64,000 bases of DNA. Source: Termitomyces sp. T153. Taxonomy: Eukaryota; Basidiomycota; Agaricomycetes; Agaricales; Lyophyllaceae. The notes beneath the pieces are model-generated. The model was not told the DNA's origin, made no database searches, and saw nothing but the letters and a program-made list of their open reading frames with translations. The stretch is from NCBI GenBank assembly GCA_018296165.2, contig JACKQL020000159.1, positions 19,482 to 83,481 of the forward strand, read 5' to 3'. Position 1 is the first letter of the stretch. Every line of letters begins with the position of its first letter. The translations under genes were made by a program, and so were the position numbers. This document shows, piece by piece, positions 61,526 through 62,656 of the stretch.

Positions 61526-62656
61526 TCACTCCCTCCCCGGACCCCCCGGCAACCCAACCCCCAGGTCGACCTCCATCTGAGCCCGCACCACCGCTAGGAT
61601 CTCCGCCAACCCCGGCAATGCCTCCCCCGCGTCGGCCGCCACCTCCCACCACGATCCCGGGGCCACCGCATTGCGCCGCCGATGCCCCGCCAGCAACCTC
61701 TCCAACCGCGCCATCCCCTGCTGCAACTCCGGAGGCTGGACTGCGGACCCCTGCGTCAACCCGTCCTGAATCGATGCGAACGCCGCGGAGGCACCATCCA
61801 AGAGGACCCGATGCTCCCGCACCCAGCCTAAACTCAGAAAATGAACCGTCAATAACGAACGGGGGAACAGGAGACAACTCACGAAGGATCCCCGCGCGAC
61901 CCGAGGCGGCCTCGTTGGCCAACCAATCCTCCCTCCGCCTCGCCGCCTCCAGCTCCGCCCACAACGCATCCCCCTCCGGAACTCGTCCCCGCCCCTCCGC
62001 TTCCCCCGCGGGCTGCCCCTCCACCTGCGCCAGACGCTCCCGCAAACCCCGCGCCTCTAGCGCTCGCTCCGTCGCCACGCGCACCGAAGTATTCCTCTCC
62101 CGCTCCATCACTTCCTTCTCCGTCCGCGCCGCGTCACGATCCTCCCTTGCCCGTCGGAGCTCACCCTCCCGTACTGCCAACGACGTCGTCAAGGCCTCCA
62201 CCTGCTTGCGAAGGAAGACCTCCGTGATTGAAGGAATCGGCGCGGAGGGACTCGACGACCGCTCCGAGGGGACGCCAGGGACAGGAGAAAAGAGGGAGGA
62301 CTCCGGAGGCCCCGCCGACAACTCGCGCCCACGCGGCCTCTTGCTGGGTCCCGCCCCCGAGGGTGGGGAAGCTCGACGCTTCCCCCGAACCATCGCCGAG
62401 GACGCCCCCTTCCCCTTTGGCACCGCGGGACGAAACTTGGTCCGCTTCGGAACCCCCGGAAAATCCACCACTACTACTACGGACGATTCTACAGGAACCC
62501 CGTCAACCATCCCGAAAGGAAAAGTCGACAACACTTACGACTCCGGTCCCTAACGCTACCCCGGCGCCGACGCTCGAACTCCTCACCCCCACTGTCATAC
62601 ACCACCACCTCGTCTAAATCGGCGGGAGAAGCCACTGGAACGCTGGGGGAAGACAT
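61526..62656 (-). CDS. Intact antisense accessory gene of the chromovirus (341 residues, two introns)
   Basis: The model has exons 62539-62656, 61883-62488 and 61526-61827. Introns are 62489-62538 (GTAAGT..TAG, 50 bp) and 61828-61882 (GTGAGT..TAG, 55 bp). The spliced frame is 1026 bases with no stop. It begins MSSPSVPVASPADLDEVVVY, then a basic, nuclear-signal-like stretch (RGKRRASPPSGAGPSKRPRG). A long heptad-type coiled coil follows (from VFLRKQVEALTTSLAVREGE to RREDWLANEAASG). The C-terminal block is GILRWVREHRVLLDGASAAF, SWWEVAADAGEALPG and AVVRAQMEVDLG. No enzyme motif or known domain is recognised. It lies between the pol end and the 3' LTR, transcribed toward pol, opposite to the element. 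Four more copies (1215, 6104, 18604, 31935) have the same location and orientation. A role in silencing escape, RNA packaging or antisense regulation is only speculation. Confidence 0.8.

What the first reader, a model, noticed from the sequence alone, without database searches (positions are those of the whole stretch)
61526..62656. A spliced coiled-coil gene carried antisense in a fungal chromovirus, in five copies
Beside gag-pol the family carries a gene on the opposite strand between pol and the 3' LTR. All five copies (1215-2866 +, 6104-7288 +, 18604-19628 -, 31935-32375 +, 61526-62656 -) run antisense to their element. In the four with a measurable LTR edge the ATG lies 211-224 bp from it. 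Exon 1 starts MSS/MSP, intron positions are shared, and the E copy is open for 341 codons after two GT..AG introns. Phases match at both junctions and splicing creates a continuous GILRWVREH. The protein has a basic segment, a long coiled coil and a conserved C-terminal block, with no known domain that I recognise.
Basis: partly seen in the sequence, partly recalled or inferred. Interest (0 to 1): 0.86.

Follow-up and report, generated by a model that had tools for sequence, protein, structure and literature searches.

The report
Spliced antisense gene in mushroom retrotransposons
A virus-like jumping-gene family in what looks like a termite-farmed mushroom carries an extra gene, interrupted by introns, on its opposite DNA strand; evolution has kept that gene working even in element copies in which none of the usual jumping-gene genes could be found.

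Summary
E (61526-62656, -) is a three-exon gene (62656-62539, 62488-61883, 61827-61526; introns 50 and 55 nt; 341 aa) running antisense, 210 nt from the element's 3' LTR. The genome looks like Termitomyces: every listed homologue is from that genus. The frame is real: 21 genomic copies show no indel in 1131 bp and dN/dS 0.21 (0.14-0.30); outside CpG 0.11 (18 copies). Third-position excess follows the gene's frame across intron 2, not the mirror + ORF.

Two corrections. E and B are non-autonomous elements in which no gag or pol was found. They share PBS-position and PPT sequences with full chromoviruses such as A, where the same gene sits antisense beside gag-pol-chromodomain. The chromovirus version is longer (four exons, 514 aa), with Zn(II)2Cys6-spaced cysteines in 13 of 13 copies; E and B lack them.

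Most likely it is a nuclear accessory regulator of retrotransposition, like plant Retand/Grande antisense ORFs and Boty brtn. Apparently new: introns, zinc-cluster spacing, and selection on the gene in elements without gag-pol. Expression and DNA binding are untested.

The parts
62539..62656 (-). E gene exon 1 (ATG at 62656)
   Evidence: ATG in 21 of 21 E-type copies
62489..62538 (-). E intron 1, 50 nt, GTAAGT..TGTAG, phase 1
   Evidence: GTAAGT donor in 18 of 21, TAG acceptor in 21 of 21
61883..62488 (-). E exon 2: NLS-like KRRASPPSGAGPSKRPRG, charged segment
   Evidence: pN/pS 0.245
61828..61882 (-). E intron 2, 55 nt, GTGAGT..TTTAG, phase 1
   Evidence: 21 of 21 canonical
61526..61827 (-). 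E exon 3: conserved C-terminal block WVREH..LLDG..WWEVA
   Evidence: pN/pS 0.136
62657..62866 (-). 210-nt leader between 3' LTR and ATG; AATATTGATCA 80 nt from the LTR and ATTAAA at -43, candidate antisense promoter
   Evidence: 27 of 28 and 21 of 28 copies
57922..59059 (+). 5' LTR of element E, TGTCACG...CCTGACA
   Evidence: alignment to 59058, 95.6% identical to 3' LTR; CA end read
59060..59077 (+). sequence at the PBS position (TAATATCAAGACTC...), the first 14 nt identical in A and B
62851..62866 (+). PPT (GCTGAAAGGGGGGTGA) directly before the 3' LTR; sets element orientation +
62867..64000 (+). 3' LTR of element E (cut by the window and contig end)
6104..7288 (+). B copy of the gene (E-type) in a second non-autonomous element
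4666..11856 (-). element B (LTRs 4666-5894 and 10652-11856 by alignment), nested in A; no gag-pol found
1215..2866 (+). A copy of the gene (A-type, degraded), antisense in a chromovirus
3122..3274 (-). chromodomain near the end of pol of element A
   Evidence: PF00385, 1e-15
3626..4165 (-). integrase core ORF of element A
   Evidence: PF00665, 24.9 bits, below cutoff 32.6
12573..13487 (-). reverse transcriptase ORF of element A
   Evidence: PF00078, 1.7e-21
15039..15512 (-). gag ORF of element A
   Evidence: PF03732, 1.5e-4, 22.4 bits, below cutoff 24.1
18604..19628 (-). C copy of the gene (A-type, degraded, no LTR edge found)
31935..32375 (+). D copy: 5' fragment of an A-type gene

Best explanation
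It is a genuine protein-coding accessory gene of a Termitomyces chromovirus lineage. It lies tail-to-tail with pol, between pol and the 3' LTR, and is probably transcribed from an antisense promoter in the ~210-nt leader next to the 3' LTR. Its introns survive retrotransposition because genomic RNA is the other strand. The A-type product (in the full chromoviruses) is a coiled-coil protein with a Zn(II)2Cys6-like cluster; I infer a nuclear, sequence-specific DNA-binding regulator of element expression or chromatin state. Elements without gag-pol (E, B types) are probably mobilised in trans through shared terminal signals. They carry the gene without the zinc cluster under purifying selection, so the rest of the protein has a function of its own. 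Shown: gene structure, antisense position, selection on the frame, zinc-cluster spacing, no gag-pol found in E and B, target-site duplications. Inferred: expression, nuclear location, DNA binding, regulatory role, mobilisation by A-type machinery.
For: Frame and splicing: 21 E-type copies with no indel in 1131 bp; 18 of 21 without an internal stop after splicing; dN/dS 0.211 (0.138-0.304), 18 non-redundant copies 0.215, their non-CpG columns 0.112 (0.046-0.232). Third-position excess follows the gene frame in exon 2 (17/28/51) and exon 3 (8/9/24); measured on the mirror + ORF it moves from position 3 to position 2 (18 copies). A-type: 13 copies with no indel in 1696 bp, dN/dS 0.354 (0.276-0.460), non-CpG 0.165 (0.105-0.261) in the 1+6 diverged set, 8 cysteines invariant in 13 of 13. 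Gene models of Termitomyces sp. J132 have the same lengths and junctions (P0003, 341 aa; P0145, 514 aa). Carrier: one locus carries an uninterrupted 514-aa antisense gene beside an opposite-strand 1394-aa pol ORF (protease, RT, RNase H, integrase, chromodomain 5.5e-17) and a gag ORF of at least 366 aa. Identical sequence at the PBS position and matching PPT in A, B and E. Perfect 5-bp target-site duplications in 14 of 15 evaluable E-type elements (18 examined). Function: C-x2-C-x6-C-x15-C-x2-C-x6-C spacing; shuffling the 65-aa segment with its 8 cysteines reaches Zn(II)2Cys6 spacing in 80 of 200000 trials. All nine nearly invariant columns of a 58-row alignment lie in an NLS-like stretch, residues 222-254. 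Long helix 273-368.
Against: No RNA or protein evidence was available. Most deposited gene models do not reproduce the splicing: by my patterns 21 of the 120 proteins listed carry both E-type junctions, and 2 of 116 held A-type-list proteins carry all three A-type junctions; many are partial or from degraded copies. Pfam Zn_clus scores stay below the cutoff (best 13.2 bits against 21). The AF2 model of the cluster is low-confidence, and no solved structure matches significantly. The E-type lacks the cluster (no cysteine in E), so zinc-cluster DNA binding cannot be its retained function. The E coil is not significant by heptad score. Exon 1 shows no significant codon-position bias (p = 0.27). 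119 of 171 variable columns are in CpG context, although masking them strengthens the result. Seven near-identical A-type copies alone cannot be told from neutral (0.49, 0.24-1.03). Homologues were seen only in Termitomyces.
Confidence: 0.62

Rival explanations
1. The antisense frame is a by-product of GC-rich, strand-biased sequence; the real constraint lies on an overlapping + strand ORF (61474-62553, 359 aa) or on RNA/DNA signals.
For: The + strand is open for 359 codons across the gene in many copies, and in exon 2 the mirror frame has a similarly low ratio (0.262).
Against: At intron 2 the constrained register switches with the antisense gene while the + ORF keeps its frame: its exon-3 ratio is 4.24 and the excess of variable positions sits at its codon position 2. 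No Pfam match for the + ORF. E-type and A-type proteins still align over 296 positions at 48% identity.
Confidence: 0.04
2. The gene acts mainly as an antisense transcription unit (RNA-level control of the sense genomic RNA), with the protein secondary.
For: Convergent position next to the 3' LTR, conserved leader elements, and the literature proposal for plant aORFs (PMC7264820, passages).
Against: Selection is on codons, not on the transcript as a whole: pN is far below pS.
Confidence: 0.12
3. The protein is a structural or packaging accessory (for example Gag partner or RNA chaperone) of the particle rather than a nuclear regulator; the cysteine cluster binds nucleic acid in the particle.
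For: Basic stretches and a cysteine cluster; elements without gag would need Gag in trans and might encode a helper of packaging (inference).
Against: Spacing is not a CCHC knuckle (weak CCHC matches lie in gag); the NLS-like stretch is the most conserved part.
Confidence: 0.15
4. A captured host gene drifting as a passenger; low dN/dS reflects host constraint before capture or gene conversion among copies.
For: Homologues seen only in one genus; a spliced gene resembles a host gene.
Against: The substitutions counted arose among element copies, after capture; E-type and A-type genes keep nearly the same position, 210-214 nt from the LTR.
Confidence: 0.05

Closest known systems
Plant antisense additional ORFs between pol and 3' LTR (aORF-3R: Grande gene23, RIRE2, Retand with TRP28)
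   Same: Same place and orientation; present across copies; DNA-binding or nuclear role proposed; some Retand elements are non-autonomous (PMC11963269 abstract and passages; PMC7264820 passages and section 5).
   Different: Carriers are plant elements (Retand is a non-chromovirus lineage, listing). Here the host is a fungus, no TRP28 match appeared in our Pfam scans, the A-type product carries Zn(II)2Cys6-spaced cysteines, and the gene has two or three introns; whether plant aORFs are spliced was not checked.
brtn of Boty-like chromoviruses in Botrytis cinerea (Zhao et al. 2011)
   Same: A fungal Ty3/gypsy element with a chromodomain and an extra antisense gene between pol and 3' LTR (title and citing passages only; the paper itself is not held).
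   Different: Ascomycete host. Whether BRTN is spliced, zinc-cluster-like or homologous could not be compared.
Fungal Zn(II)2Cys6 transcription factors (Gal4 type)
   Same: Cysteine spacing C-x2-C-x6-C-x15-C-x2-C-x6-C followed by a basic stretch and a long helix (consensus recalled).
   Different: Below the Pfam cutoff, cluster not at the N-terminus, no Fungal_trans match in the scans, encoded by a retroelement.
HBZ-type antisense proteins of deltaretroviruses (recalled)
   Same: Spliced antisense gene starting near the 3' LTR and encoding a nuclear coiled-coil regulator.
   Different: No sequence relation tested; different carrier and domain.

Membership tests
LTR-retrotransposon antisense additional ORF (aORF-3R) | ORF between pol and 3' LTR | tested here: met
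   Element A and neighbouring loci L038 and L051
LTR-retrotransposon antisense additional ORF (aORF-3R) | antisense to gag-pol | tested here: met
   pol on the opposite strand in A and L051
LTR-retrotransposon antisense additional ORF (aORF-3R) | kept in most copies of the family | tested here: inconclusive
   40 of 40 scored matches full-length, but matches were found by the gene itself; fraction of elements lacking it not measured
LTR-retrotransposon antisense additional ORF (aORF-3R) | antisense transcript | not testable with these tools
   no RNA data
Retand TRP28 (PF04195) proteins | TRP28 domain | tested here: not met
   no PF04195 match at E up to 5 or 10 among the 14 gene proteins scanned (6, 8)
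Boty BRTN | sequence homology to BRTN | not tested
   sequence and paper not available
Zn(II)2Cys6 cluster proteins | six-cysteine spacing | tested here: met
   A-type: met in 13 of 13 copies; 55 of 252 held proteins have it. E-type: 0 of 21 copies, and no frame of B
Zn(II)2Cys6 cluster proteins | Pfam PF00172 gathering score | tested here: not met
   best 13.2 bits against 21
Zn(II)2Cys6 cluster proteins | binuclear cluster fold | tested here: inconclusive
   short helices 123-127 and 149-154 after each CxxC, block pLDDT about 48-67; isolated segment mean 48.9
Chromovirus (carrier of A-type gene) | Ty3/gypsy pol with chromodomain | tested here: met
   PF00385 1e-15 in A, 5.5e-17 in L051
Chromovirus (carrier E) | gag-pol present | tested here: not met
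   no meaningful tblastn hit of A gag, RT, IN or chromodomain in 21 E-type interiors (best E 0.081) or B (best E 0.039)
Non-autonomous LTR element | LTRs, PBS-position and PPT sequences, 5-bp TSD, no gag-pol found | tested here: met
   (TSD in 14 of 15 evaluable of 18 examined); primer tRNA not identified

The most novel reading that the evidence does not exclude
E-type elements are satellite retroelements whose only protein is a zinc-cluster-less version of their helper's antisense regulator. Selection keeps it because it benefits the copy or family that encodes it, for example by dimerising with the A-type regulator and redirecting it (competition or anti-silencing) at E-type elements, much as defective interfering genomes might carry their own modifier.
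Probability: 0.28. Interest if true: 0.8.

Novelty: new variant of a known kind. Interest (0 to 1): 0.62.

Why it matters
Antisense genes of LTR retrotransposons are known in plants and fungi, but the literature seen here gives them no established function (PMC7264820). This genome offers at least 40 scored full-length copies and hundreds more candidates, several subfamilies, codon-level selection and natural 'gene-only' elements. That makes the function testable: what the non-autonomous elements keep marks the minimal functional part, and what they lack (the zinc cluster) separates DNA binding from the rest.

Tried and rejected

Selection of copies: the 21 E-type copies are E plus 20 of the other 39 best-scoring matches, so intact copies are favoured in counts of stops and indels. 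The A-type copies were chosen: seven at 91-92% and six at 86-88% identity to P0137, all 13 listed there without a stop in the matched exon-3 stretch; so A-type stop counts are favoured too. L009-L011 were dropped as near-identical for the 18-copy analyses; L018 and L027 were left out of the LTR-identity list; L010 and L020 were not in the target-site list.

Full report
WHAT WAS CHECKED. The minus strand of 61526-62656 was read directly. The spliced frame runs ATG 62656-62539, 62488-61883, 61827-61526, with introns of 50 nt (GTAAGT..TGTAG) and 55 nt (GTGAGT..TTTAG), both phase 1, giving 341 aa and the junctions RDRS-Q-SSV and GIL-R-WVREH. The window is G000:C159:19482-83481 of a 72.4-Mb assembly in 307 contigs. 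All listed homologues are Termitomyces proteins (120 of 185 listed; 26 of 26; 120 of 124), so the host is taken to be a Termitomyces species; this is inference.

ELEMENTS. Element E has LTRs 57922-59059 and 62867-64000, 95.6% identical over the aligned part (CA end). A polypurine tract GCTGAAAGGGGGGTGA lies directly before 62867, so the element runs + and the gene runs antisense, 210 nt from the 3' LTR. Twenty more copies were fetched with context: in 20 of 20 the gene lies 210 nt from the LTR, and the interior is about 3.2-4.0 kb. tblastn with gag, RT, integrase and chromodomain of element A gives no meaningful hit in E and these 20 interiors (best E 0.081) or in B (best E 0.039), and the two B ORFs and two E ORFs scanned gave no Pfam match at E <= 0.01. 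These are non-autonomous elements. Of 18 checked for target-site duplications, 14 of 15 evaluable ones have a perfect 5-bp duplication; L009 does not, and L012, L027 and L028 could not be judged (read by eye from its printed flanks). They therefore moved as units. Element A (1-18168, interrupted by B at 4666-11856) is a chromovirus: RT PF00078 1.7e-21, integrase 2.5e-5 and gag 1.5e-4 (both below the Pfam cutoffs), chromodomain 1e-15. A, B and E share the sequence at the PBS position and the PPT; the primer tRNA was not identified.

THE A-TYPE GENE. Relatives of copies A and C encode a longer protein. Seven copies chosen as stop-free (L038-L044) all splice with three introns (51, 49, 51 nt) into 514 aa, with 214 nt between ATG and LTR. 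A gene model of Termitomyces sp. J132 (P0145, 514 aa) has the same length and junctions. Introns 1 and 3 correspond to the two introns of E in place and phase. E residues 66-341 align with A-type 221-510 at 48% identity. Beside the L038 gene, on the opposite strand, lie an uninterrupted 1394-aa pol (protease, RT, RNase H, integrase, Tf2-1-like SH3, chromodomain 5.5e-17) and a gag ORF of at least 366 aa that runs to the end of the fetched stretch. So the same gene exists in full chromoviruses and in elements without gag-pol. A third subfamily (P0098 type) also has the cysteine segment. Many deposited gene models differ: 21 of 120 listed carry both E-type junctions, and 2 of 116 in the A-type list carry all three.

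SELECTION. In 21 E-type copies the gene has no indel in 1131 bp. 18 of 21 have no internal stop, and 15 of 21 have neither a stop nor a changed donor. Intron-2 sites are canonical in 21 of 21. Other parts of the interior reach a gap fraction of 0.338. dN/dS (Nei-Gojobori, pooled pairs, codon bootstrap) is 0.211 (0.138-0.304); 0.215 (0.145-0.310) for 18 non-redundant copies; 0.112 (0.046-0.232) outside CpG in those 18. Variable columns by codon position (18 copies) are 17/28/51 in exon 2 and 8/9/24 in exon 3 in the gene frame. In the frame of the mirror + ORF the excess moves from position 3 to position 2 across intron 2, so the constraint belongs to the spliced antisense frame. Exon 1 alone shows no significant bias (p = 0.27). 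In 13 A-type copies dN/dS is 0.354 (0.276-0.460), and 0.165 (0.105-0.261) outside CpG in the 1+6 diverged set; 10 of 13 have no internal stop, 2 of 13 have a changed intron-1 donor, and eight cysteines are invariant. The seven near-identical copies alone give 0.49 (0.24-1.03), not distinguishable from neutral.

DOMAINS. The A-type cysteines 122, 125, 132, 148, 151, 158 follow C-x2-C-x6-C-x15-C-x2-C-x6-C, within the recalled Zn(II)2Cys6 consensus. Shuffles of the 65-aa segment, cysteines kept, reach such spacing in 80 of 200000 trials. Pfam Zn_clus hits stay below the cutoff (best 13.2 bits against 21). The AF2 model (mean pLDDT 58.8) puts a short helix after each CxxC and a confident long helix 273-368. 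All nine nearly invariant columns of a 58-row alignment lie at 222-254, around a K..RAS..GPSK NLS-like stretch (NLS label recalled). E has no cysteine at all, and 0 of 21 E-type copies and no frame of B has the spacing; by reading the translations, E and B lack the cysteine segment and A-type intron 2, and B keeps a little more of the following linker than E.

LEADER. AATATTGATCA lies about 80 nt from the LTR in 27 of 28 copies (an 18-bp perfect palindrome in 6 of 7 A-type copies), and ATTAAA lies 43-45 nt before the ATG in 21 of 28. These are candidate antisense-promoter elements, untested.

MECHANISM. The most likely reading is a nuclear accessory regulator of element expression or chromatin state, transcribed antisense from beside the 3' LTR. 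The introns are tolerated because genomic RNA is the complementary strand. Purifying selection in elements without gag-pol suggests that the product helps the elements that carry it even when replication enzymes come from others. Expression, nuclear entry, DNA binding and mobilisation by A-type enzymes are inferred.

KNOWN RELATIVES. [quoted passage not shown] PMC7264820, passages and section 5; PMC8365987 and PMC4227169, passages; PMC5987419, one passage; Zhao et al. 2011 itself not held). The kind is therefore known. The variant, with introns, zinc-cluster spacing and retention under selection in elements without gag-pol, did not appear in the search listings.

Noticed in passing
59060-61500: The 2.4 kb of the E interior upstream of the gene (element sense) has indel-rich stretches between copies, almost no similarity to element A (only short stretches by the PBS position and next to the gene) and none to pol; no assigned origin.
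   Followed up: partly
62657-62866: Leader motif AATATTGATCA conserved at a fixed distance from the LTR; in 6 of 7 A-type copies part of an 18-bp perfect palindrome TTGATCAATATTGATCAA.
   Followed up: partly
4666-11856 within 1-18168: Non-autonomous element B is nested inside chromovirus A.
   Followed up: yes
39401-41167 and 44215-45987, minus strand: Two long ORFs with sub-cutoff F-box-like (and one LRR) matches, possibly an F-box family.
   Followed up: no
50415-51605 +: ORF with an HMG-box (30 bits, cutoff 25.4).
   Followed up: no
L018:7926-9921: An E-type LTR copy lies inside another copy of the antisense gene, splitting it.
   Followed up: no
G000 contigs C10, C112, C289, C241, C181: Several contigs begin about 1.65 kb before an A-type gene hit, as if assembly broke at these elements' LTRs.
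   Followed up: no
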